From Laetiporus sulphureus 93-53 (taxonomy: Eukaryota; Basidiomycota; Agaricomycetes; Polyporales; Laetiporaceae): 64,000 nt of DNA. Within the stretch, counting starts at the first letter, position 1. Every line of letters starts with the position of its first letter. The stretch is from NCBI RefSeq assembly GCF_001632365.1, contig NW_024468540.1:1-64000 (forward strand), written 5' to 3'. The notes beneath the pieces are model-generated. The model saw only the letters and a program-made list of their open reading frames with translations, had not been told where the DNA came from and did no database searches. A program made the position numbers and the translations under genes. Positions 7,505 to 44,360 of the stretch are shown piece by piece.

Positions 7505-7509
7505 ATCGC

Positions 7510-8231
7510 TGTCACGGTAACACCGGACAAGAGATCAAAAAGACTAAAAAGGGACAGTCACGTGGAACGTGCCACCCTGATCCCCCTGATCCCAAAATAT
7601 CCCCCTGATCCCTTAAATGGTGCAAGAGCCTGTTGACTTACTAGTCGATGTGGCGGACGCAGGCAAGGGATAGAGATATATGAAGGAGCTTATGAGCTCA
7701 GTGAGTGCTACAGGTAGTAGACGAGGAGAAACAATCTGAGGTTTCGTCCTCTACATGGCTGGTCTTATATACATGTACAGCAGGCTATCTTACCTAAGCT
7801 ACCTATCTACGGGTATAAGCTAATGGCCATACATGAAACAATAGGATGTCCGGAAGTAGAACAATAAGTGGGAAGATCGATGGTTGCCGCAGTAATGCGT
7901 GTGCTCATCGTGCCTATCTTGGTTTCCCTTTTGTTCTCCAGTGTGAACATCGTACCTATCTAGGCTTCTGGCTAAACTAATAGGAAGCGGAAGGCCGATG
8001 CATAACAATAGTCCTTGTTCCCTTTGTTCCCAAATGGGTGCCTCTATTGTATCCTGGAATAGACAGGTCCGACCGTATCTTCCGCGAGTCTGGACCATAA
8101 CATGTGATGTGGACTATCACCTGATCTCTACGCGTCATGTCTGTGGCTGAGTGGCATGAGATATTGGTGAAGCACATGATCTGTGGTGTGAGAAAAGTCA
8201 CGTGCGGACTTTGTGGTGAAAATCTGTGACA
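7510..8231 (-). repeat. 3' LTR of element 2
   Basis: 722 bp, TGTCACGG to TGTGACA, immediately preceded (element direction) by a polypurine tract. It has two copies of a short CCCCCTGATCCC-type unit near 7577-7612, where the partner 5' LTR has one fewer. Confidence 0.96.
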
Positions 8232-8247
8232 CTACCCCCCTTTCAAG
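8232..8247 (-). promoter_or_regulatory. Polypurine tract of element 2
   Basis: On the minus strand CTTGAAAGGGGGGTAG abuts the 3' LTR. This is the expected primer for plus-strand DNA synthesis. The same tract is at 24144-24160 in element 3 and 32146-32161 in element 4. Confidence 0.88.
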
Positions 8248-8249
8248 GC

Positions 8250-8651
8250 TCATTGTCCCGAGGAGCCAAAACCTTTATTACCCCTTCTAGTTGCTCGCAA
8301 TGGTTGGTAGCTTCGGGAGGGAAGCCCTTCTGCATAATACTTAAAGATTATTTGGGCTATTCTGTCTCCCGGCTTGACCGAAAATATGAAATCCGTTGTG
8401 TTGATTAGTACGACCTTGAGTTCTCCAGTGTAATCTGGATCGACGACTCCTGCGCCCACATCAATTCCTCATGCAGCCAGTCCGCTGCATGGAGCTATTC
8501 ATGTATAGGTATGTTTGGGAGGGTCAATCGCGACTCCCGTTCCTACCACAGCTCGTGAATGCGGGGGGATTTCATGTGTTTCTGCCGCATAAATATCCCA
8601 TCCTGCTGCTTCATTTGAGGATTGTTTTGGTGATTTGGCGAGATCTGTCAT
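8250..8651 (-). other. dUTPase domain at the C terminus of element 2 Pol
   Basis: Trimeric-type dUTPase, which hydrolyses dUTP to dUMP and keeps uracil out of newly made DNA. All five motifs are visible in order and in one frame with the integrase: motif 1 NEAAGWDIYAAE; motif 2 IAPCSGLA (PRSG in the copy at 32146-32580); motif 3 GVVDPDYTGELKVVL with the catalytic Asp and the base-stacking Tyr; motif 4 KPGDRIAQII; motif 5 RRGNKGFGSSGQ just before the stop. The domain starts at about MTDLAKSP and has the family's usual length (about 130 residues). Two in-frame TGAs (8499-8501, 8469-8471) sit where Arg codons are expected. Copies occur in elements 3 and 4. Confidence 0.92.
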
Positions 8652-11600
8652 CTTATGATATAGGAAGAACTCGTCTGGATGGTCGGACATGTTGATTCGG
8701 TGTGTTGATATCGGTGCAACTTCATATGAGGATAATTCGAAGTGTTTTCCACCAAAAGTGACGACCCTGATTGGTGCTTTGGCTGCATCTGGGTGTTGCT
8801 GGTGGAATTCATGAAGAAGCTCATCGACGTTGGTAAGATTTGTTCAGGGTTCCCATGTATCATCGGAATGGTCATAGCCTTTCCATTTGACGAGGTATTG
8901 GACACTTCCCCTTACGACCTTAGAGTCTAGTATTTCTTCAACTTCGAATTCTGGTTCTTCTTCGATTTCTATAGCTGGGGGCTTTGGGGGTTCGCAGTTT
9001 GCGACCGTGTCTTGATGGTACATGATCAATTTGCTAGCGTGGAAGACTGGGTGGACCTTCATTTGCTTAGGCAGTTTCAGTTTGAATGTGACTGGGCCTA
9101 GCTTCTGAAGTACTTTGTAAGGTCCGAAGTTTTGTGTGCCTAGCTTCGCAGACTTGACTTTTACTCTGAGATCCTTTCCCTTGAGTAGTACCAGATCTCC
9201 GACTTTGAATGGGACTTCTCCCTTTTTCTCGTCAAAGTACCATTTCATCCGTGAAGCTGAAACTTCCAATGCTGCCTTTGCCTGTTCTTGTGCCTCAGAT
9301 TGGTGAGCAAATAGATGTTCCAATGAAGGGTGACATATTGATTCATGCACGTCTGGTGCCATCTTTGGATGCCGGCCATATTCGACAAAGAATGGGGAAA
9401 GTGCGGTGGACTCATGGATCTGGTTATTGTATGAAAATTCTGCCGTTGGCAGATAGTAGACCCAATCATTCTGTTTGTGGTTACAGTACATATGTAGATA
9501 CTGTTCCAACACCTGATTAACCCTTTCTGTCTGACTGTCTGTTTGGGGGTGATATGCTGTAGACATTGTAGACTTTATACCAAGTTTCTGGCAGAACTCC
9601 TGGAACAGTTTGCTCGCAAATTGAGTACCTCTGTCTGAGATAATCTGGTGCGGCAATCCGTGGAGTTTGAAGACTTCATTATAGAATACATTAGCAACTT
9701 GCGACGATGTGACTGTGTCGTCCGTTGCGTAAAAGTGCGCTCGCTTTGTGAGTCTGTCTACGACGACAAGTATTGCCATCTTCTTTTCTCCCCTAAAGTC
9801 CATGGCTGGAGGAAGTTGAGTGATGAGATCGACTGTGACGATTTCCCATGGTTCTCCTGGTACCTCATTGGGTTGTAATAGTCCGTATGGTTTTTCTCTT
9901 GAGTACTTGTTGCGTTGACAACTGTCGCAACCTTGTACGTATTGTTTAACCATTACAGACATTCCTGGCCACCAATAATTCCGCAAAATAAGCTCCAACG
10001 TTTTGAACCTGCCGGGGTGTCCGGCTGGTAAGGTGTCATGATGGAGTTTTATTAGGTCAAGGCATAGCTGTTGATCCTTGGGGACATAAACCTTTCCGCG
10101 ATGGAGCAGCAGTCCGTGCTCAAAGTTCCATTCTGCGAGGTTTTTCCCAAATTTGTGTTGTCCTGTAGTCAAAAGCGCACGATAATTTTTGGTCATCATG
10201 TCGTCTGTGAGTGCCTTCTTGATCCTTTCCAGTAGTTGAGCATCATCAACTTCAGATGCGTGAGCGGGTCGAATCGCATTGATAGCGAAAAATTCAGGTT
10301 TTAACAGCATTTGGTTCGAATTGTCGCTGTCTACCCCTCTCTCATGGTCTGGCCTCCTGGACAGAGGATCAGCACATAGCATAGTCTTTCCAGGTCGGTG
10401 ACTAAGTATGAAATTAAATCTTGTGAGGAATAATGACCAGCGCGCTTGGCGCCGGGATAATTTTTGTGCCTGATGGAAGTATGTAAGGTTGAGATGGTCT
10501 GACCAAATTTCAATGGGTTCTGGGTGTCCTTCTAAATAGTGCCGGTATTCTTCTAGTGCCCGAATGATAGCAAGCATGTCTTTGTCATAAATCTCGTAGT
10601 TCCGCTCATGTTTGTTGAGTGACTTAGAGTAGTATGCGACTGGATGCCATAGCTTGTCCTCTCCCAGTTGTTCGAGTACTGCACCAGTTGCATAATCTGA
10701 AGAGTCTGTCTCTAGACGGTATGGTGCAGTGTCGTTGGGGAGTTGTAAGATCGGGGCTGAGGTAAACACCATTTTAAGTGCACTGAAGGCTTGGTCTTGC
10801 TCTTCCTTCCATTGCCAGGGCACGTCCTTACAGGTGAGAAGCGTTAAATGTCGTGCAAGTTTCACAAAGTCCTTTATAAATCGCCTGTAGAAATTCGCGA
10901 ATCCTAAAAAGGCCTGTACTTGTTTGACCTTTGTCGGTGCGGGCCAGCCAAGTACACCTTCAACTTTAGCAGGGTCCATCTGTACTGAGTTCTTGCTGAT
11001 GATCATGCCAAGATACTCGATTGAGGACTGTTCAAAGAAGCATTTCTCCGGTTTGGCATATAAGTCATTGTCCCGGAGGCACTGTAGAACTGCTTTCACT
11101 AGTCGTCGGTGTTCATCGAGATCGTCCGTAAATATGAGGATATCGTCTAAGTAGACTACCACCTTTCCAGTGCGAATTAAGTCTTCGAGGACTGTATTCA
11201 TCATTGTTTGGAAGGTGCTAGGAGCATTGCAGAAACCGAAGTACATTACGGTGGGTTCAAAGAGGCCACGATGTGTGATGAAGGTGGCTTTCTCTTCGTC
11301 TCCTTCCCTAATCCTTATGTTGTTGAACCCCCATCTCAGATCAAGCTTCGTAAATATACTAGCATGTGAGAGTCTGTCGATGAGGTCCGAAATGCGTGGG
11401 ATTGGGAACTTGTTCTTCTTTGTGACTGCGTTGAGGTTCCTGTAATCTTGTATGAGCCTCAGTGATCTGTCTTTCTTTTTGATGAAGAAAACGGGTGCTG
11501 CGGTTGGACTCCTTGATCTCTTGATGTAACCTTTGGCCAACTCTTGGTCTATCCACGTGTCGAGCGAATTCCTTTCCTGTAGGTTCATAGGATATAACTT

Positions 11601-12391
11601 TGCCGGGTGTGGTAACGATGCTTCTGGAACAAGTTCGATTGGATGATCGTAGGGCTTTCTTGTGGGCATTTGTTCCGACTGCTTCTTGGAGAACACATCG
11701 CCATACTCGTGGAAGTGTTTGGGGACATAGGCTGACCAGTAGTCTTTGTCCTGTTCTCCTTTTTGCGGTGCTCTATCCTGATTCCTCTTGGTGTCAAGAC
11801 CCATAATGAGTGATGCTATGGCCTGTGCATCAGGGTCTTCTGATAGTGACACCCATCTAATGAAGCTGTCCATGTCATTCCAGTTGTCACCCAACTCCTG
11901 GGAACTGACGAACTCCATTAGGTCTTCGATGTGGAGGATGTTTGTGTCTTCCAGGTCCTCCTCCTGGATTGCTACCTGTGAGGGTGTGCATCTTTGTGGG
12001 CACCGGGTGAAATTGACTGTGAGTTTTCCCAATCCACTTCGGGATTATGCTCCTTGAGGAAACTCATGCCTAGTATAACATCTTTATGTCCTATATCGGT
12101 GACCAAAAGGCTTTGCCTGCTTGTGTGGTTTCCGATGGTTATACTTAGAAGAACCCTTTTCTTAATGGTTCCACCCTTGTTGTGAGATGCGTCTGCATTG
12201 TAAACCCTGATCTCTTTCTCGAGTGAGATCGTAGCGAGATTCAACTGATCAACCAGCCGTGGGTTGATGTAGCAAGAATATGCTCCTGAATTGAGGAGCG
12301 CCTCAGTCTGGACTTCCCTTACTCCCTGTTTGAGGTGAACAGGTAAATCGATCGTGTGTTTTGACGAACCAGTAAATGCGATGTATAACAA
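8250..12391 (-). pseudogene. pol of element 2: PR-RT-RNase H-IN-chromodomain-dUTPase
   Basis: The replication polyprotein. The protease part is in the frame of 11972-12391 (LLNSGAYSCYI, aspartic-protease-like, with Asn where other copies have Asp). A one-base deletion near 12027 shifts into a 1,062-codon open frame (8844-12032) holding RT (YLDDILIF, about residues 294-301 of that frame), RNase H ([13 protein letters not shown], about 432), integrase with an HHCC zinc site ([12 protein letters not shown], about 662-706), a catalytic core with DRGTQF and a Glu in TERVNQ, and a chromodomain ([25 protein letters not shown]) at the end. The frame continues past a TGA at 8844-8846 into a linker and dUTPase to 8250, with further TGAs at 8499 and 8469. 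All downstream parts share one frame, so Pol was probably about 1,330 residues. Confidence 0.93.
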
Positions 12392-12459
12392 ACTTGATAC
12401 TGGTACATGCGAGAGCGAGTAGATACTATTACAGTGTCTATGAGAACTCTGGCCAAACC

Positions 12460-14088
12460 TCAGAGAACCCGCCGAAGAAAATCCTCATCATCTTCTACCT
12501 CCGTGATCCTAGCTGCTTCGACAGCTGGTTCCGGTTCTGCCTCCTTTTCCTTTCCCTTTGCGTCGTAGCTGGCGATGAAAGCACAGACTGCTTCTTCCCT
12601 CACCTTGCTGTCGTCGGAGATGTCTGAGGCCATGTTTGAAGAAATTGCCCTTGTTGCTTGGCCCCGCTTTGGCATTTCGAATTTGCCTTTGTACTTGGGG
12701 TCTGGGCATCACTGTTTGAAAATGAAGGGGTGTTTCCCACATCGTACACACAGCTTTTTCTCCAGCCATCCTTCTTGCTCCTTGGTGAGGGTGGATACTC
12801 GATCCACGACCATTGCGTTGGGGTCTTTTGGGGCCCGTGGTGTTGATGATGATGATGTTGTTACTGTTCCGCATTGGCCTGCCTTGTCGGCTCTGAACTT
12901 GGACTCGAGTTGTAAGCAGAGGTCGAGGTATTCCGGCCATGTGATTGGGTCGGAAATGCCTAGGCTGTCTCGTGTGACCATTGCCTGTCGTACCTCCTTG
13001 CTTCGGTGTTCAGCGATGTAACCGATGAGTGCGGTGTGCCCTAAGTTGGTCTTAGTGGCCCATTGCCGGAACTGTTCTGCGAAGGAGACCATGGTAGGAT
13101 AGGTCTTTGCGCAGATCTCCTTCAAATGTTGTTGCGCATCCTTGTCCGGGTCGAGGGTCCTGTAGTTTACTCTGAGAATGTTGACGAAGTCTTCCCATGT
13201 GCCAAGTGCCTGCCGTGCTGCTGCTCTGGTCGCGTACTCAGACATGTATGTGAATGCGCCACCTTCCAAATGCAGCAGGGCCGTGGTAATCTTGTGTTCA
13301 TCGTCGTTGATCTCATTCCACCGCATCCATATACTGAGTTGTTGGAGCCAGTCCTCCAGACTTCCTTTGCCCGAGTAGTGTGGAGGTTCAGCAATTTTGA
13401 TGTGGGGCTTGTGTGATTGGACCATGCCGGATGTTTGACCTTGCATTGTAGTGACGCCGCTTGCTTTGAGCGAAGCTAGCTCGTGCCGCAGCTTAACGTT
13501 AGCTGCCTTGATTTCCATCATTTCTTTGCCTGTGTCGAGCATTGCCACCTGGGTTCCCGTGGGCTCGTCATTTAAAACCGCCATATGTGCATCTTGCGCA
13601 AGGATCCTATCCTTAAGCTTCCTGATCTCCGTCTGGAGAACTGCCTCCTTAAGTCGGTGTTCACTTTTGTTGTTTTGGATTAGCGATTCAAAGGCTTTCT
13701 TGTGCTCGTACATCTTGTTTCCGAGCACATTGTAGACCTTGGCGATTTCGGTAGTGGCTGTGAGCTTCATTGCGACGATTACCCATTCGCATATGTGGTC
13801 TGGGACTTCTCCGGGAGCGGACTGTCTGAGAGCATCTTCTAGGTGCTCGAATTGGTGTCCGTAAAACTCCCAGATGGATGGAACGTAGGCGGGTACAAGT
13901 GATGGTGTCGGGGATGCTGGTCCTCCAACTTGTGATGCAGAGTCCTGCAGTCCTAGTGCAGGTTCTGGTGAATTGCGCTGCGAGGTGCGTGGGGTGCTTC
14001 CGTTGTGTGCTGACTTGACATTTGTATTAAGAATGTCATCCATTCATTGCCTAAACATGGATGCGTGTGCACGATCGGCTGACTCCAT
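12460..14088 (-). pseudogene. gag of element 2
   Basis: A 542-codon reading frame from the ATG at 14088 (MESADRAHAS) to the TGA at 12460. It has a coiled-coil-like N-terminal part, a capsid domain (LEDWLQQLSIWMRWNEI..EYLDLCLQLESKFRADK), a Cys/His segment CVRCGKHPFIFKQ, and an acidic C-terminal tail (EVEDDEDFLRRVL). Two in-frame TGAs interrupt it, at 14044-14046 and 12709-12711; other copies have CGA (Arg) at both. Pol starts in the -1 frame relative to this gag, and the same offset is seen in elements 3 and 4. Confidence 0.9.
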
Positions 14089-14103
14089 TGTGATATAGGT
14101 AAA

Positions 14104-14958
14104 CTAATACAAAAAGTGCAAATATCTCGCTTTCGAGATAAAGACCAGAGCCTTGGCGATTTCCTGCAGCCTCTCTTCCTTTCCTATCTGCTTGAAACTG
14201 ATTCCTCCTATCTCCAGACAGACTTTGTTGATAACCTGCTTCTCGACGAATGTATATGTGTGCGTCCCTGTGTGTAGGCCGGTGCAGACCTTATCGAGCT
14301 CTGTGGCGAGGCTAAAGATGGGTCCTTGGTGCTCATCCTTGAGATGATATGAGAATGCTCCTAATATGGGTTGGAGCCTGAAGTGGGTAGCATCTACCTG
14401 CTTCGTAAGGGTCTCAATGTGGATCGTCGGCCTGACTCTGGAAGGGAGTGGGCGGATGGGACGTGCGACGGTGTTTGTCTTTATGAAGTTGGGTAGGGGA
14501 TGAGTTGGAATGGGAGCAATGACAGGGGGAGGAACTGCGTTGGAAGTGATAAGCTCTGGAGGTGGTGCCGGCTTGTGACTACCAGTGGTAAGACATCCTT
14601 TTCTGGGCTTGTAGCGTTCGAGCGGTGGGGTGCGATCGTGAGGTTTGCGGATGATTCCGCACTTTATAATGTGCATAGTATCGACAACCCTAGCTGCTGC
14701 GCGCTGCCTGTCTGTGGACGATGCGCCGAGTGATGCGAGTGTGAGGAGTCTTCCATGCTCCTTGTTGGTTTCCTGATGCTTGTAGTGGGCGTTGAGGTCG
14801 ATCCTGGGGGTGGCCTTGCGCTTTGAGGCTTTGGGCAGCTCAGAGTCTTGCTGAGGCTCACGCCAGATAGAGATCAGATTGGAATGTGTGTCAAAAAAGC
14901 CGCACGCTACGGCTGAAACTGCTTGCGCTGAAAATATGCAGTTGCTTGTGTTAGACAC
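14104..14958 (-). CDS. ORF0 of element 2, unknown protein upstream of gag
   Basis: 284 codons, intact, beginning MSNTSNCIFSAQAVSAVACGF about 36 bp inside the 5' LTR and ending TAG 15 bp before the gag ATG, in the same frame as gag. A proline-rich basic middle (PLERYKPRKGCLTTGSHKP) is followed by a likely helical C-terminal part (LATELDKVCTGLHTGTHTYT). No known domain. It stayed open while gag and pol of the same copy did not, and differs from the copy at 1638-2495 mostly by substitutions rather than stops, which hints at selection on the source element. Confidence 0.75.
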   Translation of the reverse strand: MSNTSNCIFSAQAVSAVACGFFDTHSNLISIWREPQQDSELPKASKRKATPRIDLNAHYKHQETNKEHGRLLTLASLGASSTDRQRAAARVVDTMHIIKCGIIRKPHDRTPPLERYKPRKGCLTTGSHKPAPPPELITSNAVPPPVIAPIPTHPLPNFIKTNTVARPIRPLPSRVRPTIHIETLTKQVDATHFRLQPILGAFSYHLKDEHQGPIFSLATELDKVCTGLHTGTHTYTFVEKQVINKVCLEIGGISFKQIGKEERLQEIAKALVFISKARYLHFLY

Positions 14959-14979
14959 TAAGCAGGGGTGCAGAAAATG

Positions 14980-14994
14980 TCAGATTGTTTCTAA
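14980..14994 (-). promoter_or_regulatory. Putative self-primer binding site of element 2
   Basis: Two bases inside the 5' LTR the minus strand reads AGAAACAATCTGA (14980-14992). There is no TGG start as in tRNA-primed sites. These 13 bases are the exact reverse complement of TCAGATTGTTTCT inside the LTR (complement at 15193-15205), about 30 bases after the TATA box. That is the arrangement expected for Tf1/sushi-type self-priming, in which the folded-back mRNA 5' end primes reverse transcription. The same pairing holds at 2517 and 38892. Confidence 0.75.
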
Positions 14995-15697
14995 TGTCAT
15001 GGTAACACCTGACAAGAGATCAAAAAGACTAAAAAGGGACAGTCACGTGGAACGTGCCGCCCTGATCCCCCTGATCCCTTAAATGGTGCAAGAGCCTGTT
15101 GACTTACTAGTTGATGTGGCGGACGCAGGCAAGGGATAGAGATATATGAGGGAGCTTATGAGCTCAGTGAGTGCTACAGGTAGTAGACGAGGAGAAACAA
15201 TCTGAGGTTTCGTCCTCTACATGGCTGGTCTTATATACATGTACAGCGGGCTATCTTACCTAAGCTACCTATCTACGGGTATAAGCTAATGGCCATACAT
15301 GAAACAATAGGATGTCCGGAAGTAGAACAATAAGTGGGAAGATCGATGGTTGCTGCAGTAATGCGTGTGCTCATCGTGCCTATCTTGGTTTCCCTTTTGT
15401 TCTCCGGTGTGAACATCGTGCCTATCTAGGCTTCTGGCTAAACTAATAGGAAGCGGAAGGCCGATGCATAACAATAGTCCTTGTTTCCTTTGTTCCCAAA
15501 TGGGTGCCTCTATTGTATCCTGGAATAGACAGGTCCGACCGTATCATCCGCGGGTCTGAACCATAACATGTGATGTGGACTATCACCTGATCTCTACACG
15601 TCGCATCTGTGGCTGAGTGGTGTGAGATATTGGTGAAGCACATGATCTGTGGTGTGAGAAAAGTCACGTGCAGACTTTGTGGCAAAAATCTGTGACA
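14995..15697 (-). repeat. 5' LTR of element 2
   Basis: 703 bp, TGTCATGG to CTGTGACA, directly followed by the target duplication ATCGC. Compared with the 3' LTR it lacks one copy of the CCCTGATCCC-type unit near 15060-15080. Confidence 0.96.
15193..15237 (-). promoter_or_regulatory. LTR promoter: TATA box and predicted transcript start
   Basis: On the minus strand TATATAAG (15230-15237) is followed about 30 bases later by TCAGATTGTTTCT (15193-15205). A start at or near 15205 would place the primer-complementary bases at the very 5' end of the RNA, as self-priming needs. The start is inferred from spacing. Confidence 0.65.
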
Positions 15698-15712
15698 ATC
15701 GCCTCCATAAGA

Positions 15713-22900: not shown

Positions 22901-24148
22901 CATGTACTGCAACCACAAACAGAATGATTGGGTCTATTACCTGCCAACAGCAGAATTTTCATACAACAACCTAACCAATAAGTCCACCGCACTTTCCCCA
23001 TTCTTTGTCGAATATGGCCGACATCCAAAAATGGCACCAGACGTACATGAATCAATATGTCATCCCTCACTGGAACATTTATTCGCCCACTGATCCGAAG
23101 CACAGGAACAGGCAAAGGCAGCATTGGAAGTTTCGGCTTCACGGATGAAATGGTACTTTGATGAGAAAAAGGGAGAAGTCCCATTCAAAGTCAGAGACCT
23201 AGTACTACTCAAGGGAAAAGACATTGGAGTAAAAGTCAAATCCGCGAAGCTAGGCACATAAAACTTCGAACCTTACAAAGTACTTCAGAAGCTAGGCCCA
23301 GTTACGTTCAAACTGAAATTACCTAAGCAAATGAAGGTCCACCCAGTCTTCCATGCTAGCAAGTTGATCATGTACCATCAAGACACGGTCACACACCATG
23401 AACCCCCAAAGCCCCCAGCTATAGAAATCGAAGGAGAACCAGAATTCGAAGTTGAAGAAATACTAGACTCGAAGGTCGTGAGGGGAAGGGTCCAATACCT
23501 TGTCAAATGAAAAGGCTATGACCATTCCGATGATATATGGGAACCCCAAACAAATTCCACCAACGCCGATGAGCTTCTTCAAGAATTTCACCAACAACAC
23601 CCAGATGCAGCCAAAGCACCAATCAGGGTTGTTACGTTCAGTGGAAAACGCTTCGAACTATTCTCATACGAAGTTTCACCAATATCCACACACAGAATCA
23701 ACATGTCCGATCATCCAGACGAGTTCTTCCTATATCACAAATGACAGACCTCACCAAATCACCGAAAAAATCCTCAAACGAAGCAGCAGGATGGGATATT
23801 TATGCAGCAGAAATGCACGAAATCCCTCTGCATTCACGAGCTGTAGTAGGAACAGGAGTCGCCATTGACCCTCCCAAACATACCTATACATGAATAGCTC
23901 CATGCAGCAGACTGGCTGCAAGAGGAATTGACATGGGCGCAGGAGTCATTGACCCTGATTACACTGGAGAACTCAAGGTCATACTGATTAACACAACAGA
24001 TTTTGTATTTTCGATCAAGCCAGGAGACAGGATTGCCCAAATAATCTTTGAATATTATGCAGAAGGCTTCCCTCCAGGAGCTATCAACCGTTGCAAGCAA
24101 CTAGAAGGGGAAATAAAAGTTTTGGCTCCTCGGGACAATGAGCCTTGA
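19908..24148 (+). pseudogene. pol of element 3 with C-terminal dUTPase
   Basis: In the -1 frame relative to gag, overlapping it by about 22 bp. Protease LLDSGAYSCYI (the catalytic Asp-Ser-Gly is kept here), RT with YLDDILIF, RNase H, integrase (DRGTQF; CDSCQHNK with the zinc site), chromodomain ([14 protein letters not shown]) and dUTPase (GVIDPDYTGELKVIL, KPGDRIAQII). In-frame stops: TGA at 21288, 21540, 21996, 23091 and 23508, TAA at 23259; all fit C->T on one strand or the other, except that 23091 may need two steps. No frameshift occurs until a one-base loss near 23743, at the start of the dUTPase, then TGA at 23891 and another one-base loss near 24068 that removes motif 5. Confidence 0.92.
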
Positions 24149-24160
24149 GAGGGGGGGTAG

Positions 24161-24865
24161 TGTCACAGATTTTTGCCACAAAAGTTCGCACGTGACTTTT
24201 CTCACATCACAGATCACGTGCTTCACCAATATCTCATGCCACTCAGCCACAGATGCGACACATAGAGATCAGGTGATAGTCCACATCACATGTTATGGTC
24301 CAGACTCGCGGATGATAGGGTCAGACCTGTCTATTCCAGGATACAATAGAGGCACCCATCTGAGAACAAAGGGAACAAGGACTATTGTTACGCATCAGCC
24401 TTCTGCTTCCTATTAGTTTAGCCAGAAGCCAAGATAGGCACGATGTTCACACCGAAGAACAAAAGGGAAACCAAGATAGGCATGATGTTCACATGCGTTA
24501 CTGCGGCAACCATCGATCTTCCCACTTATTGTTCTACTTCTGGACATCCCATTGTTTCATGTACGGCCATTAGCTTATACCTGTAGATAGGTAGCTTAGG
24601 TCAGATAGCCTGCTGTACATGTATATAAGACCAGAATGTAGAGGACGAAACCTCAGATTGTTTCTCCTCGTCTACTACCATAGCACCCACTGAGCTTACC
24701 AAGCTCCTCATATATCTCTCTCAACCTCCAACCGCTTGCTTCACCACCAAGTAAGTCTTAGGCTCGCCAGCCACATAAGGGTTCAGGGGGATTACAGGGC
24801 GGCACATTCCACGTGACCATTACCTTTTTAGTCTTTTTGATCTCTTGTCCAGTGGTGCTGTGACA
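24161..24865 (+). repeat. 3' LTR of element 3
   Basis: 705 bp from TGTCACAG to CTGTGACA, preceded by the polypurine tract (24144-24157) and TAG. The pol stop codon lies inside the tract. TATATAAGA near 24622 and CAGATTGTTTCT near 24655 mark the promoter and transcript start. Confidence 0.95.
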
Positions 24866-31446: not shown

Positions 31447-32145
31447 TGTCACAGCACCGCTGGACAAGAGATCAAAAAGACTAAAAAAGGAACGGTTACA
31501 TGGAACGTGCCATCCTGATTCCCCTGATCCCTAAAGTGGCTTGAGAGCCTAACACTCACTTGTTGGCGAAGCAAGCATATGGAGGTGTGAAAGATATATG
31601 ATGGAGCTGGTAAGCTCAGTGGGTGCTACAGTGGTAGACGAGGAGAAACAATCTAAAGTTTCATCCTCTACATGCTGGTCTTATATACGTGTACAGGAGC
31701 CTGATTACGTAACCTTCATTGTACTACTACTACAGAATAGATGATTGGCTATCTACATATCTAGGCGACTAAACTATACACAGAACAATAAGTGAGAGAA
31801 TCTATCTGTAAGTAGAACAATAGGTGAGAAGATTGATGTTCTCCTGTGGCAACGGTGAGATGATCCATCCTATCATGGTAATGGCTATACCTTGAGCTGA
31901 TTGCCTAGATGATCCTGATCAATAGTCCTTGTTCCCTTTGTTTCCAAATGGGTGCCTCTATTGTATCCTGGACTAGACAGGTCCGGCCATATCATTCGTG
32001 AGCCTGGATCATAACATGTGATGTGGACTATCACCTGATCTCTACGCATCACGTCTGTGGCTGAGTGGCATGAGATAATGGTGAAGCATGTGATCTGTGG
32101 CATGAGAAAAGTCACGTGTGGACTTTGTGGTGAAAATCTGTGACA
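31447..32145 (-). repeat. Outer 3' LTR of element 4 (699-bp subtype)
   Basis: TGTCACAGCACC to CTGTGACA, preceded in element direction by a polypurine tract (CCTTGAGAGGGGAGTAG). It differs in its middle from the 720-bp LTRs, with its own AT-rich block near 31690-31880. Confidence 0.94.
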
Positions 32146-32149
32146 CTAC

Positions 32150-35100
32150 TCCCCTCTCAAGGCTCATTGTCCTGAGGAGCCAAAACCTTTATTTCCCCTT
32201 CTTGTTGCTCACAACGGTTGGTAGCTTCTGGAGGGGAGTCCCTCAGCATAATATTCGAAGATTATCTGAGCTATCCTGTCTCCTGGCTTAATCAAAAATA
32301 CGAAATCTGTTGTGTTGATCAGTATGACCTTGAGTTCTCCGGTGTAATCTGGATCAACGACTCCTGTGTCCATGTCAATTCCTCAAGCAGCCAGTCCACT
32401 ACGTGGAGCTATTCATGTATAGGTATGTTTGGGAGGGTCAATGGTGACTCCTGTCCCTACCACAGCTCGTGAATGCGGAAGAAAATCGTGTGTTTCTGCT
32501 GCATAAATATCTCATCCTGCTGCTTCATTTGAGGATTTTTTCGGTGATTTGGCATTGTCTGTCATTTTATGATATAGGAAGAACTCGTCCGGGTGGTCGG
32601 ACATATTGATTCTGTGTGTGGATATCGGTGCAACTTCATATGAGGATAATTCGAAGTGTTTTCCACCAAAAGTGATGACCCTAATTGGTGCTTTGGCTGC
32701 ATCTGGGTGTTGTTGGTGGAATTCTTGAAGAAGCTCATCAGCGTTGGTGAGATTTGTTTGGGGTTCTCATGTATCATCGGAATGGTCATAGCCTTTCCAT
32801 TTGACGAGGTATTGGACCCTTCCCCTCACAACCTTCGAGTCTAGTATTTCTTCAACTTCGAATTCTGGTTCTCCTTCGATTTCTATAGCTGGGGGCTTTG
32901 GGGGTTCATGGTTTGCGACCATGTCTTGATGGTATATGATCAACTTGCTAGCATGGAAGACCGGGTGAACCTTCATTTGCTTGGGCAATTCCAGTTTGAA
33001 CGTGACTGGGCCTAGCTTCTGAAGTACTTTGTAAGGTTCAAAGTTTTGTGTGCCTAGCTTCGCAGATTTGACTTTTACTCTGAGATCCTTTCCCTTAAGT
33101 AGTACTAGTCTCCGACTTTGAATGGGACTTCTCCCTTTTTCTCGTCGAAGTACCATTTCATCCGTGAAGTCGAAACTTCCAATGCTGCCTTTGCCTGTTC
33201 TTGTGCCTCAGTTCAGTGGGTGAATAGATGTTCCAATGAAGGGTGACATATTGATTCATGTACGTCTGGTGCCATTTTTGGATGTCGGCCATATTCGACA
33301 AAGAATGGAGAAAGTGTGGTGGACTCATGGGCCTGGTTGTTGTATGAAAATTCTGCTGTTGGCAGGTAATAGACCCAATCATTCTGTCTATGGTTACAGT
33401 ACATTCGCAGATACTGTTCCAACACCTGGTTAACCCTTTCTGTCTGACCGTCTGTCTGGGGGTGATATGCAGTGGACATTGTTGACTTTATACCGAGCTT
33501 CTGGCAGAACTCCTGGAATAGTTTGCTTGCAAACTGAGTACCTCTGTCTGAGATAATCTGGCGCGGCAATCCGTGGAGTTTGAAGACTTCATTATAGAAT
33601 ATGTTATCGACTTGCGACGATGTGACTGTGTCGTCCATTGCATAAAAGTGCACTCGTTTCGTGAGTCTGTCTATGACGACAAGTATTGCCATCTTCTTTT
33701 CTCCCCTAAAGTCCATGGCTGGAGAAAGTTGAGTGATAAGATTGATGGTGATGATCTCCCATGGTTCTCCTGGTACGTCATTGGGTTATAGTAGTCTGTA
33801 CAGTTTTTTCCTTGAGTACTTGTTGCGTTGACAACTGTCGCAACCTTGTACGTATTGTTTAAACATTACGGACATTCCTGGCCACCAATAATTCTGAGTA
33901 ATAAGCTCCAACGTCTTGAACCTGCCGGGGTGTCCAGCTGGTAAGGTGTCGTGATGGAGTTTTATTAGGTCAAGGCGTAGCTGTTGATCCTTGGGGACAT
34001 AAACCTTTCCACGATGGAGCAGCAGTCCATGCTCAAAGTTCCATTCTGCGAGGTTTTTTCCAAATTCGCACCGTCCTGTAGTCAAAAGTGCACAATAATC
34101 CTTGGTCATCATGTCGTCTGTGAGTGCCTTCTTGATCCTTTCCAGTAGTTGAGCATCATCAACTTCAGATGCGTGAGCGGGTCGAATCGCATTGATAGCA
34201 AAAAATTCAGGTTTTAACAGCATTTGATTCGAATTGTCGCTGTCTACCCCCCTCTCATGGTCTGGCCTCCTGGACAGAGGATCGGCACATAACATTGTCT
34301 TTCCAGGTTGGTGACTGAGTATAAAATTGAAACGTGTGAGGAATAATGCCCAGCGTGCTTGGCACTGGGATAACTTCTGTGCCTGGTGGAAGTATGTAAG
34401 GTTGAGATGGTCTGACCAAATCTCAATGGGTTCTGGGTGTCCTTCTAAGTAGTGCCGGTATTCTTCTAGTGCTCGAATGATTGCAAGCATTTCCTTGTCG
34501 TAAATCTCATAGTTTCGCTCATGTTCATTGAGTGATTTAGAGTAATATGCAACTGGATGCCATAGCTTGTCTTCCCCTAATTGTTCGAGTACTGCACCAG
34601 TTGCGTAGTCTGAGGAGTCAGTCTCTAGACGGTATGGTGCAACGTCGTTGGGGAGTTGTAAGATCGGGGCTGATGTAAATGCCGTTTTGAGTGCACTGAA
34701 GGCTTGGTCTTGCTCTTCCTTCCATTGCCAGGGCACGTCCTTACAGGTGAGAAGTGTTAAAGGTCATGCGAGTTTCGCAAAGTCCTTTATAAATTGCCTG
34801 TAGAAATTCACGAATCCTAAAAAGGCTTGTACTTGTTTGACCTTTGTAGGTGCGGGCCAGCCAAGCACACCTTCAACTTTAGCAGGGTCCATCTGTACCG
34901 AGTTCTTGCTGATGATCATTCCAAGATACTCGATTGAGGACTGTTCGAAAAAGCATTTGTCTGGTTTGGCATATAAGTCATTGTCCGGAGGCGCTGAAGA
35001 ACTGCTTTTACTAGATGTCGGTGTTCATCGAGATCGTCCGTAAAAATGAGGATGTCGTCTAAATAGACTACCACCTTTCCAGTACGAACTAAGTCTTCAA

Positions 35101-36329
35101 GGACTGTATTCATCATTGTCTGGAAGGTACTGGGAGCATTGCAGAAACTGAAGTACATTACTGTGAGTTCGAAGAGACCGTGATGCGTGATAAAGGTGGC
35201 TTTTTCTTCGTCTCCTTCCCTAATCCTTATGTTATTGAACCCCCATCTCAGGTCGAGCTTAGTAAATATACTAGCATGTGAGAGCCTGTCAATGAGGTTC
35301 GAAATGCGGGGGAGTGGGACCTTGTTCTTCTTTGTTACTGCGTTGAGGTTCCTGTAGTCTTGTATGAGTCTCAGTGATCCGTCTTTCTTTTTGACAAAGA
35401 AGACAGGTGCTGCGGTTGGACTTCTTGATCTCTTGATGTAACCTTTAGCCAACTCTTGGTCTATCCACGTGTCAAGCGAATTTCTTTCCTTAGGTTCATA
35501 GGATATACTGTAACTTTGCCGGGCATGGTAACGATGCCTCTGGAACAAGTTCGATTGGATGATCGTAGGGCTTTCTTGTGGGCATTCGTTCTGACTGCTT
35601 CTTGGAGAACACATCGCCATACTCGTGGAAGTGTTTAGGAACATAGGCTGACCAGTAGTCTTTGTCCTGTTCTCCTTTTTGCAGCACTCTATCCTGATTC
35701 CTCTTGGTGTCAAGGCCCATAATGAGTGATGCTACAGCTTGTGCATCAGGATCTTCTGATAATGACACCCATCTAATGAAGCTGTCCATGTCATTCCAGT
35801 TGTCACCTAACTCCTGGAAACTGATGAACTCCATCAGGTCTTCAATGTGGGGGATGTTTGTGTCTTCCAGGTCCTCCTCCTGGACTGCTATCTGTGAGGG
35901 TGCTCATCTTTGTGGGCACTGGGTGAAATCGACTGTGAGTTTCCCCCAATCCACTTTGGGGTTATGCTCCTTGAGGAAACTCATGCCTAGTATAATGTCT
36001 TTGTGTCCTATATCGGTAACCAAAAGGCTTTGTCTGCTTGTGTGGTTTCTGATGGTTATACTTAGAAGAACCCTTTTCTTAATGGTTCCACCCTTGTTGT
36101 GAGATGCATCTGCATTATAAACCCTGATCTCCTTTTCAAGTGAGATCGTAGTGAGATTCAATTGATCAACCAGCCGTGGGTTGATGTAACAAGAATATGC
36201 TCCTGAGTCGAGGAGTGCCTCAGTCTGGACTTTCCTTACTCCCTGTTTGAGGTGAACAGGTAAATCGATCGCGTGTTTTGATGAACCAGTAGATGCGATG
36301 TATAAAAAACTTGATACTGGTACATGCAA
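32150..36329 (-). pseudogene. pol of element 4 with C-terminal dUTPase
   Basis: Same domain order as element 2: protease LLDSGAYSCYI (about 36200), [10 protein letters not shown] (about 35055), RNase H (about 34610), integrase (CDSCQRNK about 33830, DRGTQF about 33545), chromodomain (32767-32870) and dUTPase to about 32160. Several frameshifts and stops separate the pieces. The dUTPase keeps PRSG in motif 2 and GVVDPDYTGELK in motif 3, but the Trp of motif 1 is TGA and the Arg before IAPRSG is TGA (32413-32415), the same position as in elements 2 and 3. This copy spans the likely recombination point between outer and inner elements, so it may be a chimera. Confidence 0.88.
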
Positions 36330-36376
36330 GAGTGAGTAGGTACTATTACAATGTCTATGGGAACTCTGGCCAGACC

Positions 36377-37995
36377 TCAGAGAACCCGCCGAAGAAAATC
36401 CTCATCGTCTTCTACCTCCGTGATCCTAGCTGCTTCGACGGCTGGTTCCAGTTCTGCCTCCTTGTCCTTTCCCTTTGCATCGTAGCTGGCGATGAAAGCA
36501 CGGACTGCTTTTTTCCTCGCCTTGCTGTCATCGGAGCTGATGGATGATGTTGCTGTCGATATTGCCCTGGTTGCTTGACCCCGCTTTGGCATTTCAAATT
36601 TGCCCTTGTACTTGGGGTCTGGGCATCGCTGTTTAAAAATGAAGAGGTGTTTCCCGCATCGTGCGCACAGCTTCTTTTCCAGCCATCCTTCTTGCTCCTT
36701 GGTAAGTGTGGATACTCGATCCACAACCATTGCGTTAGGGTCCTTTAGGGCTTGTGGTGCCGATGATGTTGTTGTAACCGTTCCGCATTGTCCTGCCTTG
36801 TCGGCTCTGAACTTGGACTCCAATTGAAGGCATAGGTTGAGGTATTCCGGCCATGTGATGGGGTCAGCAATTCCTAGACTGTCTCATGTGACCATTGCCT
36901 GGCGTACGTCCTTGCTTCGATGTTCAGCAATGTAACCGATGAGTGCAGTGTGCCCTAAGTTGGTCTTAGTGGCCCATTGCTGGAACTGTTCTGTGAAAGA
37001 TACCATTGTGGGATATGTCTTACTGCAGATCTCCTTCAAATGCTGCTGCACATCCTTGTCCAGGTCGAGGGTCCTGTAGTTTACTTTGAGAATGTTGACG
37101 AAGTCTTCCCATGTGCCAAGTGCTTGTCGTGCCGCTGCCCTGATCGTGTATTCGGACATGTATGTGAATGCGCCACCTTCCGCAAGGCTGTGGTAATCTT
37201 GTGTTCGTCATCGTTGATCTCGTTCCACCGCATCCATATACCGAGTTGTTGGAGCCAGTCTTCCAGACTTCCTTTCCCCGAGTAGTGTGGAGGCTCAGCA
37301 ATTTTGATGCGTGGCTTGTGCGATTGGACCGTCTCAGATGTTTGACCTTGTGTCACAGTGATGCTGCTTGCTTTGAGCGAAGCTAGCTCATGTCGCAGCT
37401 TTGTGTTAGCTGACTTGATTTCCATCATCTCTTTTCCAATGTTCAACATTGCCGCTTGTGTACCTGAGAGCTCATCGTTGAGCACCGTTATGTGGGCATC
37501 TTGCATGTTGATCCTGTCCTTGAGCTTCCCATTTTCCGTTTGGAGGACTGCCTCCTTTAACTGGTGCTCGTTCTTGTTGTTCTGGATCAACGATTCGAAG
37601 GCCCTCTTGTGTTCGTACATTTTGTTGCTGAGCACATTGTAGACCTTGGCAACTTTGGTGCTGACCATGAGCTTCATCGCGATGATTACCCATTCACAGA
37701 TGTGATCCGGGACTTCACTGGGAGCGGACTGTCTAAGTGCATCTTCTAGATGCTCAAATTGATGCCCTTCAAACTCCCAGGTGGGAGGAACATAGGCAGG
37801 TAAGAGTGATGGTGTCGGGGATGTGGGTCCTCTGACTTGTGATGCAGAATCCTGGGGTCCTAGTCCAGGTTCAGGTGAGTTGTGCTGCGAGGTGCATGGG
37901 GTGCTGCCATCATGTGCTGATTCAACATTGGTGTGAAGAATATCGTCCATTCTTTGCCTGAACGTGGATGTGTACGCACGATCGGCTCCCTCCAT
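36377..37995 (-). pseudogene. gag of element 4
   Basis: Starts MEGADRAYTSTFRQRMDDIL at 37995 and ends RRVL-TGA at 36377. A 7-bp deletion near 37180 shifts the frame inside the capsid domain; a TGA (CGA in relatives) follows near 36886. The Cys/His segment CARCGKHLFIFKQRC is intact. Pol is in the -1 frame relative to the 3' part. Confidence 0.88.
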
Positions 37996-38016
37996 TGTGA
38001 TGTAAAGATGTGTAAA

Positions 38017-38870
38017 TTAATACAAAAAGTGCAAATATCTCTTTTTAGAGATGAAAACCAGGGCTTTGGTGATTTCCTGCAGCCTTTCCTCCTTTCCTAT
38101 CTGCTTGAAACTAATCCCTCCTATCTCCAAATAGACCGTGTTGATCACCTGCTTCTCAATGAATGTGTATGTGCACGTGCCGGTGTGAAGGTCAGCGCAG
38201 ACCTTATCGAGTTCTGTGGCAAGGCTATAGATGGGTCCTTGGTGCTCGTCCTTGAGACGGTATGAGAATGCTCCTAGTATAGGCTGGAGCCTGAAGTGGG
38301 TAGCATCTACCTGCTTTGTAAGGGTCTCGATGTGGATTGTTGGCCTGACTCTGGATGGGAGTGGGTGAATGGGATGGGCAATGGTGTTGGTTTTGATAAA
38401 GTTCAGCAGTGGCCGGACTGGGATGGGAGCAATGATGGGGGGAGGAACTGCGTTGGAGGTGATAAGCTCTGGGGGTGGTGCCAGCTTGCGACTACCAGTG
38501 GTAAGGCATCCTTTTCTGGGCTTGTAGCATTCAAGCGGTGGGGTGCGATCACGTGGCTTGCAGATGATTCCGCGCTTTATGATGTGCATTGTATCGACAA
38601 CCCTGGCTGCTGCGCGCTGCCTGTCTGTGGACGATGCGCCTAGTGAGGCAAGAGTGAGGAGCCTTCCGTGCTCCTTGTTGGTTTCTTGATGCTTGTAGTG
38701 AGTGTCGAGGTCAAACCTGGGGTGGCCTTGCACTTTGAAGCTTTGGGCAGCTCAGAGTCTTGCTGAGGCTCACGCCGGGTAGAGGTCAGATTGGAATGTT
38801 TGTCAAAAAAGCCGCGCGCTATGGCTGAAACTGCTTGCACTGAAAATACGTGGCCACTTATGTTAGACAC
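38017..38870 (-). pseudogene. ORF0 of the inner element, one-base frameshift
   Basis: Begins MSNISGHVFSVQAVSAIARGF at 38870. A one-base loss near 38720 shifts the frame and the rest (38017-38733) is open. It ends TAA, followed in frame by seven codons and the gag ATG, as in element 1. Confidence 0.75.
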
Positions 38871-38906
38871 TAAGCAGGGGTGCAGAAAATGTCAGATTGT
38901 TTCTAA

Positions 38907-39626
38907 TGTCACGGTAACACCAGACAAGAGATTAAAAAGACTAAAAGGAACAGTCACGTGGAACGTGCCGCCCTGATCCCCCTGATCCCAAAGTATCTCC
39001 CTGATCCCTATGTGGTGCAAGAGCCTGTTGACTTACTAGTCGATGTGGCAGATGCAAGCAAGGGGTAGAGATATATGAAGGAGCTTGTAAGCTCAGTGAG
39101 TGCTACAGGTAGTAGACGAGGAGAAACAATCTGAAGTTTCATCCTCTACATGGCTGATCTTATATACATGTACAGTGGGCTATCTTACCTAAGCTACCTA
39201 TCTACGGGTATAAGCAAATGGCCATACATGAAACAATAGGATGTCCGGAAGTAGAACAATAAGTGGGAAGATCGATGGTTGCTGCAGTAATGCATGTGCA
39301 CATCGTGCCTATCTTGGTTTCCCTTTTGTTCTCCGGTGTGAACACCGTACCTATCTAGGCTTCTGGCTAAACTAATAGGAAGCAGAAGGCCGATGCATAA
39401 CAATAATCCTTGTTCCCTTTGTTCCCAAATGGGTGCCTCTATTGTATCCTGGAATAGACAGGTCCGACCGTATCATCCGTGGGTCTGGACCATAACATGT
39501 GATGTGGACTATCACCTGATCTCTACGTGTCACGTCTGTGGCTGAGTGGCATGAGATATTGGTGAAGCACATGATCTGTGGTGTGAGAAAAGTCATGTGC
39601 GGACTTTGTGGCAAAAATCTGTGACA
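38907..39626 (-). repeat. Inner LTR in element 4
   Basis: 720 bp, TGTCACGG to CTGTGACA, closest by eye to the LTRs of elements 1 and 2. The primer site TCAGATTGTTTCT (plus-strand view, 38892-38904) lies to its left, so it is a 5' LTR. To its right is the cut ORF0 of the outer element; CAGAC (39627-39631) would be one half of the lost inner target duplication. Confidence 0.94.
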
Positions 39627-40310
39627 CAGACCTTGTCAAGTTCTGTGGCGAGGCTGTAAATGGGTCCCTGATGCTCGTCCTTGAGGCGATATGTGAACGC
39701 TCCTAGTATGGGCTGGAGCCTAAAGTGGGTAGCATCTACCTGCTTGGTGAGCATCTCGATGTGTATCATTGGTTTGACTCTGAATGGGAGTGGGCAAATA
39801 GGATGGGCAATGGTGTTGATCTTTATAAAGTTCAGTAGTGGCTGAACTGGGATGAAAGCAATGATGGGGGGAGGGAACGCGTTAGATGTAATAAGCTCTG
39901 CAGGTGGTGCTGGCTTGCGACTACCAGTGGTAAGGCATCCTCATCTGGGCTTGTAGCATTTGAGCAGTGGGGTGTGATCACGAGGCTTGCAGATGATTCC
40001 GCACTTTATAATATGTGTGGTATCAATGACCCTAGCTACTGCGTGCTGCCTGTCTGTGGACGATGTGCCTAGTGATGCAAGTGTGAGGAGCCTTCCATGC
40101 TCCTTGTTGGTTTTCTGACACTTGTAGTGGGCATCGAGGTTGATCCTGGGTGTGGCCTTGCACTTTGAAGCCTTGGGCAGCTCAGAGTCTTGCTGAGGCT
40201 CACGCCGGGTAGATATCGGATTGGAATGTGTGTCAAAAAAGCTGCACGCTATGGCTGAAACTGCTTGTGCTGAAATATGTGGCCACTTGTGTCAGACACT
40301 AAGCAGGGGT
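39627..40310 (-). pseudogene. Truncated ORF0 of the outer element
   Basis: About 225 codons similar to ORF0 (QAVSAIACSFFDTHSNPIST.., LITSNAFPPPIIAF.., LATELDKVC), cut by the inner LTR. It contains a stop after CYKPR (CGA->TGA type) and a small frame change near its start. Confidence 0.8.
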
Positions 40311-40336
40311 GCAGAAAATTGTCAGATTGTTTCTAA

Positions 40337-41035
40337 TGTCACAGCACCACTGGACAAGAGATCAAAAAAACTAAAAAAGGAACAGTCACATGGAACGTGC
40401 CATCCTGATCCCCCTGATCCCTAAAGTGGCTTGAGAGCCTAACACTCACTTATTGGTGAAGCAAGCATATGGAGGTGTGAAAGATATATGATGAAGCTGG
40501 TAAGCTCAGTGGGTGCTACAGTGGTAGATGAGGAGAAACAATCTAAAGTTTCGTCCTCTACATGCTGGTCTTATATACGTGTACAGGAGCCTGATTACAT
40601 AACCTTCATCGTACTACTATTACAGAATAGATGATTGGCTATCTACATATCTAGGCGACTAAACTATATATGGAACAATAAGTGGGAGAATCCATCTATA
40701 AGTAGAACAATAGGTGAGAAGATCGATGTTCTCCTGTGACAATGGTGAGATGATCCATCCTATCGTGGTAATGGCTATACCTTGAGCCAATAGCCTAGAT
40801 GATCCTGAACAATAGTTCTTGTTCCCTTTGTTCCCAAATGGGTGCCTCTATTGTATTCTGGAATAGACAGGTTTGGCCGTATCATCCATGGGCCTGGACC
40901 ATAACATGTGATGTGGACTATCACCTGATCTCTACGTGCTGTGTCTGTGGCTGAGTGGTGTGGGATAATGGTGAAGCACGTGATCTGTGGCATGAAAAAA
41001 GTCACGTGCGGACTTTGTGGCAAAAATCTGTGACA
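40337..41035 (-). repeat. Outer 5' LTR of element 4 (699-bp subtype)
   Basis: Same length as the 3' partner at 31447-32145 and closely similar. TCAGATTGTTTCT lies inside at 40322-40334; the LTR start region pairs with it over 11 bases (AGATTGTTTCT) rather than 13. Confidence 0.94.
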
Positions 41036-43917: not shown

Positions 43918-44360
43918 CTGTCACATGAGGCATGCATTTGTGCCCATTCACAGCCAGCACGTATTCTCGTCCAAATTCATCGTAAGTATTTCCCCAACAC
44001 TCCCATCTTGGAGCGAACATAGAAGCCTCTGTCGACATCTTGCATTCTAGAGCCTTATGATGCAGTTGAAGGGCACACCACGCATGTCTTCTCATGTATG
44101 TATGCCATCCTGTTCACGGTTCTCTTCACACTCTCTTACACTCTGCATCCATATATAATGCCTTCTTCACATTTCACTCATTCCTCAGTCTTATCCTTGA
44201 CGTCCAGATGGCCTCCCTGAAAGACATTCAAACTTGGACCCAAATCTTTCACGATGCTCATAGCAACGTCTCTTCACAAGTGCGAGATGAACTGATTCGT
44301 GTTGGTGCTTCAGCCAGCTGCAAGGGCAATTACTCAGATTCAGTCATCAAGTGCTTGAGC
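43918..44360 (+). other. Possible host gene start, interrupted by a solo LTR
   Basis: A TATA-like CATATATAATG (about 44148) precedes an ATG at 44208 reading MASLKDIQTWTQIFHDAHSN, cut by the LTR at 44361. Beyond it, MDVTELYTFEQPEDGKLQAQ.. to a TAG near 45320 could be the continuation. I do not recognise the protein. Confidence 0.35.

What the first reader, a model, noticed from the sequence alone, without database searches (positions are those of the whole stretch)
8250..8651. A dUTPase fused in frame to the C terminus of a fungal chromovirus Pol, after the chromodomain
Seen: the five dUTPase motifs in order (AAGWDIYAAE, IAPCSGLA, GVVDPDYTGELKVVL, KPGDRIAQII, RRGNKGFGSSGQ) in the same frame as integrase and chromodomain, ending just before the polypurine tract. 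Copies lie at about 23744-24139 and 32160-32577. Known: retroviral dUTPases lie between RNase H and integrase (non-primate lentiviruses) or near protease (betaretroviruses). A position after a chromodomain would be a third arrangement. Inference: it limits uracil incorporation during reverse transcription in dUTP-rich cells, or acts on the integration complex. I cannot say whether it has been described in fungal elements.
Basis: partly seen in the sequence, partly recalled or inferred. Interest (0 to 1): 0.88.

Follow-up and report, generated by a model that had tools for sequence, protein, structure and literature searches.

The report
Fungal retrotransposon carrying dUTPase enzyme tail
Dead copies of a fungal jumping gene in this stretch end in an enzyme domain of the kind that destroys the DNA precursor dUTP; the same arrangement is kept intact by selection in other copies of the genome, and a similar one was already reported from another wood-rotting fungus.

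Summary
The dUTPase is real. It lies on the minus strand (8253-8651), behind integrase and chromodomain in one reading frame, at the Pol end of a complete Ty3/Gypsy chromovirus (7510-15697; LTRs, 5-bp target-site duplication). The layout is no accident of dead copies. In the same 38.6-Mb genome (probably Laetiporus), 123 of 150 scored dUTPase stretches lie 105-203 nt downstream of a chromodomain; open Pol frames with this ending exist in two sister families, the window's own family has one open from integrase on, and two full-length Pols from other public records share it. On an RT-RNase H tree they form one clade (100/99). Three family II copies show dUTPase dN/dS of 0.05-0.08, so the domain is selected to work, most likely as a dUTP hydrolase keeping uracil out of cDNA. 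It is not new in kind: PMC2864245 (2010) reports dUTPase at the carboxyl terminus of Pol in PosPlaTy3-4 of Postia placenta, and ERV3 carries it downstream of integrase (PMC4299795). Verdict: new member of a known kind.

The parts
8253..8651 (-). dUTPase domain of copy A at the C terminus of Pol (stop codon 8250-8252); two in-frame TGA at 8499-8501 and 8469-8471
   Evidence: Pfam PF00692 E 1.6e-33; frame and stops
8799..8948 (-). chromodomain of copy A, with one in-frame TGA (8844-8846)
   Evidence: PF00385 71 bits, 1 TGA
8847..12032 (-). open part of Pol of copy A: RT, RNase H, integrase, SH3-like, start of chromodomain (1062 aa)
8232..8244 (-). purine-rich tract before the 3' LTR
   Evidence: read from sequence
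7510..8231 (-). 3' LTR of element A (TGTCAC...GTGACA)
14995..15697 (-). 5' LTR of element A; K2P 0.032 to the 3' LTR (22 differences in 703 columns, 19 gap columns apart)
7505..7509 (.). target-site duplication ATCGC (other copy at 15698-15702)
23744..24138 (+). dUTPase of copy C; TGA and frame breaks
23445..23594 (+). chromodomain of copy C, 1 TGA
24161..24865 (+). LTR downstream of copy C
32167..32565 (-). dUTPase of copy D; four TGA
32713..32862 (-). chromodomain of copy D, 1 TGA
31447..41035 (-). element D between LTRs 31447-32145 and 40337-41035, target-site duplication GAATC, LTR K2P 0.080; another family LTR (38907-39626) lies inside

Best explanation
The window holds decayed copies of a chromodomain-bearing Ty3/Gypsy (chromovirus) family whose Pol ends in an extra domain, a trimer-type dUTPase, in the order PR-RT-RNase H-integrase-chromodomain-dUTPase. 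Shown: position, frame, homology, the motif residues in the open copies, purifying selection, and one clade, on an RT tree of 31 rows, of the sampled elements with this layout. Inferred: the domain is made and packaged as the tail of the integrase, hydrolyses dUTP to dUMP around the reverse-transcribing particle, and so keeps uracil out of the cDNA, which the host's uracil-DNA glycosylase would otherwise attack. That the selected activity is dUTP hydrolysis is likely (about 0.8); that the benefit is less uracil in cDNA is plausible (about 0.65). The window copies themselves are dead.
For: Homology: Pfam E 1.6e-33 (window copy), 1.2e-34 (open copy L022), 1.4e-30 and 1.1e-36 in the Pol of L024 and L017; AlphaFold model of the 90%-identical public protein P0023, core pLDDT above 90, matched to human dUTPase by Foldseek, E 2.4e-13. 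Layout: 123 of 150 scored dUTPase stretches have a chromodomain 105-203 nt upstream on the same strand, 0 within 400 nt in the reverse order or on the other strand. Open Pol: 1393, 1390 and 1499 aa; P0143 and P0144 from other records have the same order. The five C-terminal rows form a clade, 100/99, on the RT-RNase H tree. Selection: three family II pairs, dUTPase dN/dS 0.05-0.08 and RT 0.01-0.02 (ratios), against an expected N:S of 1.75-2.77 without selection. Motif residues in families I-III, P0143 and P0144. Host UNG exons on contig 14.
Against: No activity was measured. dN/dS shows that the protein sequence matters, not that dUTP hydrolysis is the reason. Family III pairs are too alike for a firm value (0.08-0.51). 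The open copy of the window's own family (L022) is masked over most of Pol, so an uninterrupted full Pol of family I was not seen, and L026 of that family has an altered motif II. Whether the domain stays joined to integrase or is cut off by the protease is unknown. The tail of the structure model with motif V has low confidence (blocks of 58 and 51).
Confidence: 0.85

Rival explanations
1. The domain is kept mainly for an architectural or regulatory role: its trimer helps the integrase-chromodomain assemble or tether, and hydrolysis is secondary.
For: It is fused directly behind integrase and chromodomain through a poorly conserved linker (21-39% identity between families).
Against: Residues recalled as catalytic are kept, and on the RT tree related elements carry dUTPase in three other places (before PR, PR-RT, RNase H-integrase), which fits an enzyme whose place does not matter better than a part of the integrase.
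Confidence: 0.08
2. A recent capture of the host fungus's own dUTPase gene.
For: The host gene exists (L033, intron-bearing) and element copies lack introns, as a captured cDNA would.
Against: Host and element dUTPases share 43%, 43% and 49% of residues (families I-III), against 64% between host and human. An old capture is not excluded: C-terminal rows plus P0030 plus host as one clade gives AU p 0.151 and 0.091; families I-II plus host, p 0.199; without P0030, p 0.0067.
Confidence: 0.04
3. The fusion is an artefact of nested dead insertions: a dUTPase gene that happens to lie after a chromodomain.
For: All three window copies carry stops, and several LTR elements lie close together in the window.
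Against: Open frames through both domains in families I, II and III and in two other records; 123 of 150 same-strand pairs at clustered distances.
Confidence: 0.01

Closest known systems
PosPlaTy3-4, Ty3/Gypsy LTR retrotransposon of Postia placenta (Novikova et al. 2010, PMC2864245; passages seen, figure and supplements not seen)
   Same: Fungal Ty3/Gypsy element with dUTPase at the carboxyl terminus of Pol; the same genome has other families with dUTPase elsewhere in Pol, as here. The title of that paper's Additional file 2 speaks of dUTPase domains from chromodomain-containing Gypsy elements.
   Different: Its sequence is not held here, so family membership could not be tested; the passages do not say in words that the chromodomain comes just before the dUTPase.
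dUTPase-containing Metaviridae of Phanerochaete chrysosporium (Novikova and Blinov 2008) and Tmt1 of Tuber (Riccioni et al. 2008)
   Same: Fungal LTR retrotransposons with dUTPase, as cited in PMC2864245.
   Different: Neither paper was seen. PMC5408684 and PMC6431247, citing Riccioni et al., place the fungal dUTPase between PR and RT.
ERV3 (class III) endogenous retroviruses
   Same: dUTPase domain downstream of integrase (PMC4299795, passages).
   Different: No chromodomain is mentioned in those passages; vertebrate retroviruses, not Metaviridae; not compared by sequence here.
Bdelloid rotifer Juno, Vesta and TelKA elements (PMC5408684, passages)
   Same: dUTPase inside Pol of an LTR retrotransposon.
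   Different: Between PR and RT; no chromodomain found in any lineage.

Membership tests
Trimeric dUTPase (PF00692) | Match over the whole domain model | tested here: met
   E 1.6e-33 for the window copy, model positions 3-129 of 129
Trimeric dUTPase (PF00692) | Five motifs in order with the catalytic residues (motif names and roles recalled) | tested here: met
   Open copies L022, L024, L017 aligned with human dUTPase. Exceptions: window copy A has stops and one altered motif II residue, L026 an altered motif II, P0023 one motif IV change, P0143 one motif V change
Trimeric dUTPase (PF00692) | dUTP hydrolysis and homotrimer | not testable with these tools
   Only a monomer model was made
Chromovirus (chromodomain-bearing Ty3/Gypsy) | Domain order PR-RT-RNase H-integrase-chromodomain | tested here: met
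   P0002 (L024) and P0003 (L017); window copy A from RT on
Chromovirus (chromodomain-bearing Ty3/Gypsy) | LTR pair, 5-bp target-site duplication, purine tract | tested here: met
   Element A
Chromovirus (chromodomain-bearing Ty3/Gypsy) | Primer-binding site | not tested
   The sequence after the 5' LTR was printed but not matched to a tRNA
PosPlaTy3-4-like elements | dUTPase at the carboxyl terminus of Pol | tested here: met
PosPlaTy3-4-like elements | Sequence relationship to PosPlaTy3-4 | not testable with these tools
   Sequence not held; supplementary files not available
Lentiviral or betaretroviral dUTPase layout | dUTPase between RNase H and integrase, or by the protease | tested here: not met
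   dUTPase follows integrase and chromodomain in L024 and L017 and in the window copy; L009 of family IV does have it before PR

The most novel reading that the evidence does not exclude
The C-terminal fusion founded a distinct chromovirus lineage in which an integrase-chromodomain-dUTPase chain works as one unit: the dUTPase trimer both cleans the nucleotide pool at the intasome and helps to assemble or tether the integrase at heterochromatin.
Probability: 0.07. Interest if true: 0.6.

Novelty: new member of a known kind. Interest (0 to 1): 0.3.

Why it matters
LTR elements carry dUTPase in several places of Pol; this genome has two layouts side by side (before PR, and after the chromodomain). 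The C-terminal layout marks one RT clade in the sample, and its enzyme is under strong purifying selection, which adds evidence of function to a domain whose role the 2010 paper called unclear. Comparing lineages with and without the domain would be a way to ask when an element needs its own dUTPase.

Tried and rejected
Recent host capture: rejected on identity. Old capture, and one dUTPase capture for the whole C-terminal clade: undecided. In one search the nine C-terminal rows could be one clade (AU p 0.485). With P0143 and P0144 added, the C-terminal rows on their own were rejected as a clade (p 0.012; p 0.0085); the short public protein P0030 pairs with P0144 at 100/99, and with P0030 included a clade is not rejected (p 0.494; 0.276). 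P0030 may be a fragment of such a Pol, which I could not check. C-terminal rows plus host without P0030: p 0.0067. Some other element dUTPases are closer to the host gene (P0151 60%, P0145 58%, family IV 54%), and P0151 joins it on one tree (91/76), so capture from fungi may have happened in other elements. The layout has one origin on the RT tree; the dUTPase trees (about 140 columns, few supported branches) cannot say whether the domain was ever replaced.

RIP in CpA context as the cause of the stops: not supported. C-to-T-type differences of window copies A, C and D from L022 fall in CpG in 8 of 11, 11 of 19 and 13 of 26 cases, while L022 has 42 CpG among 188 C sites counted on both strands; CpG observed/expected is 0.79, 0.45 and 0.51 against 0.92 in L022. 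This looks like decay of methylated CpG. L022 is not the ancestor, so direction is assumed.

Uracil glycosylase: PF03167 found nothing at E 0.001 and one weak hit, E 0.0016; the ung model found three colinear exons on contig 14 (E 3.8e-16, 1.9e-11, 4.7e-5; none alone reaches the curated cut-off). Viral contigs: no match. Four low-scoring dUTPase hits taken as possible host exons were element copies. One search stopped on a script error after its tree (12 rows; C-terminal rows one clade, 98/96); the rest was redone. Values for L025 are out of register and were recomputed.

Full report
What is there. The finding lies on the minus strand. Translating 8200-9000 in reverse shows chromodomain, linker and dUTPase in one frame, ending in TGA at 8250-8252, followed by a purine-rich stretch and the LTR start at 8231. 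With X at stops the domain matches Pfam dUTPase over positions 3-129 of 129, E 1.6e-33, far beyond chance. The frame is broken by one TGA in the chromodomain and two in the dUTPase. Copies C (23744-24138, plus) and D (32167-32565, minus) are broken as well. The element around copy A is complete from LTR to LTR: 7510-8231 and 14995-15697, 5-bp duplications ATCGC on both sides, LTR distance K2P 0.032. Element D has its own 5-bp duplication and LTR distance 0.080.

Not an accident of dead copies. The window's genome is held (38.6 Mb, 124 contigs). The nearest named public proteins are from Laetiporus sulphureus 93-53 (94% over 87% of the query, and a 186-aa chromodomain-dUTPase piece), so the host is probably Laetiporus; I did not test host genes for this. 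A PF00692 search scored 150 of 204 candidates, all 150 above the Pfam cut-off, so 150 is a lower bound. Set against the 150 scored chromodomain stretches (of 195 candidates), 123 of 150 dUTPase stretches have a chromodomain 105-203 nt upstream on the same strand, with gaps at 105-129 (39), 156-172 (56) and 177-203 nt (28); none has the reverse order or the opposite strand within 400 nt (groups summed from its table). Likewise 123 of the 150 chromodomain stretches have such a dUTPase. 29 of the 123 have no stop inside the dUTPase stretch. The 27 dUTPase stretches without a chromodomain include the six loci of a fourth family and L026, whose upstream part is masked.

Families. The 20 loci fetched were all chosen among those without a stop inside the dUTPase. 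By identity to copy A over chromodomain and dUTPase, or part of them, 14 have the chromodomain-dUTPase layout or, for L026, its visible part: family I (the window's; L022 and L026, about 93%), family II (L023, L024, L025, L027, L028, 49-52%) and family III (L015-L021, 38-40%). In L009-L014 only the dUTPase matched; in L009, the one mapped, it lies before the protease. I call these six family IV. Eleven of the 20 loci have masked stretches. Open Pol frames with all domains mapped are 1393 aa (L024) and 1499 aa (L017); L028 has a 1390-aa frame of the same kind. L022 is open from within the integrase through the dUTPase, but masked upstream.

Elsewhere. Four have dUTPase after the chromodomain: L024 and L017, and P0143 (1346 aa) and P0144 (1384 aa) from unnamed public records. 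The most frequent layout with a mapped chromodomain is PR-dUTPase-RT (15 proteins). Ten had no dUTPase. In 19 only the dUTPase was mapped by these models; five of these are Ty1/copia-like by Pfam. A third search with the domain alone found 7983 proteins and listed 120.

Trees. On an RT-RNase H tree of 31 rows (30 of the 80 proteins and window copy A), the five C-terminal rows (families I, II, III, P0143, P0144) form one clade at 100/99, beside chromoviruses without dUTPase and with an N-terminal one; the six position states need ten changes on that tree, though some states rest on incomplete proteins. Long branches were flagged there, none in this clade. The dUTPase trees are poorly resolved: families I and II pair firmly (98/96; 99/98), and the rest is open (tests in Tried and rejected). 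The host dUTPase, found by a DNA pattern and read from an intron-bearing gene (L033), is 43%, 43% and 49% identical to families I, II and III, against 64% to human.

Selection. In family II, the dUTPase of L023, L024 and L028 differs by 21-26.5 synonymous and 4.5-7.5 non-synonymous changes per pair (dN/dS 0.05-0.08); over all ten pairs of five copies the range is 0.03-0.10. For the same three copies RT gives 0.01-0.02, RNase H to integrase 0.03-0.04, integrase C terminus with chromodomain about 0.03-0.04 (ratios). So the dUTPase is somewhat less constrained than RT, but strongly constrained. Without selection, 1.75-2.77 non-synonymous changes per synonymous one are expected for one copy each of families I-IV under five mutation biases. 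Family IV gives 0-0.06 (four of six loci used); family III, close relatives, 0.08-0.51 (six of seven loci used); family I 0.11-0.51, most pairs involving dead copies. Pairs within a family share history, so they are not independent. Choosing copies without stops removes nonsense changes, not missense ones.

Fold and mechanism. An AlphaFold model of P0023 (193 aa, 90% identical to family I in the dUTPase; 30 sequences in the alignment) has mean pLDDT 83 and core values above 90, with a weak tail, and matches human dUTPase, E 2.4e-13. In L022, L024, L017, P0143 and P0144 the aspartates of motifs I and III, APRSGL of motif II, GDR-AQ of motif IV and GFGS-G of motif V are kept; P0023 has one motif IV change, P0143 one in motif V, L015 one in motif II, and L026 an altered motif II. 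Uracil-DNA glycosylase exons are present in the host genome. The likely mechanism is hydrolysis of dUTP at the reverse-transcribing particle, as proposed for retroviruses; this step is inferred.

Known or new. PMC2864245 (passages; figures and supplements not seen) says that in Postia placenta the dUTPase is found at the amino terminus of Pol (PosPlaTy3-3), at its carboxyl terminus (PosPlaTy3-4) or between PR and RT (PosPlaTy3-5), that its role and origin remained unclear, and that it seems to have been acquired independently. PMC2774666 (passage) mentions dUTPase of various fungal chromoviruses. PMC4299795 (passages) describes dUTPase downstream of integrase in ERV3. PMC5408684 (passages) says that in vertebrate retroviruses dUTPase can lie after IN. 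PMC6431247 (passage) mentions it between PR and RT in fungi and rotifers. PMC4531489 has no hit for retrotransposon, fung, chromodomain or Ty3. So the layout is a known kind and the element a new member. I saw no measure of selection on such a dUTPase in the passages read; the literature searches were (most listed papers were seen as listings only), and none searched for selection tests as such.

Noticed in passing
L009-L014 (same genome): A separate element family; in L009 the dUTPase lies before the protease, in a pol frame that overlaps the end of gag. The dUTPase of L009, L010, L011 and L013 has pairwise dN/dS 0-0.06.
   Followed up: partly
P0010, P0012, P0013, P0016, P0019, P0020, P0021 (public proteins): dUTPase domains inside Ty1/copia-type polyproteins (RVT_2 or Pol_BBD domains in five of these seven; P0012 and P0013 labelled copia by eye only).
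   Followed up: partly
window 38907-39626 within 31447-41035: A third LTR of the family lies inside element D, whose outer LTRs share a GAATC target-site duplication; this looks like a nested insertion or recombination between copies.
   Followed up: no
window 25952-26553 and 43012-44699: Inverted repeats of 89-93% identity of what looks like another repeat family.
   Followed up: no
L033 (G000 C1, near 1115396): What looks like the fungus's own dUTPase gene, split by introns.
   Followed up: partly
P0174, P0177, P0186, P0187: Plant proteins (tea, ginger) with dUTPase and, in two of the four, a reverse transcriptase domain, perhaps of integrated plant pararetroviruses (recalled).
   Followed up: no
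P0151, P0145: Element dUTPases from other records that are 60% and 58% identical to the window host's own dUTPase, closer than the C-terminal families; possible captures from fungi.
   Followed up: no
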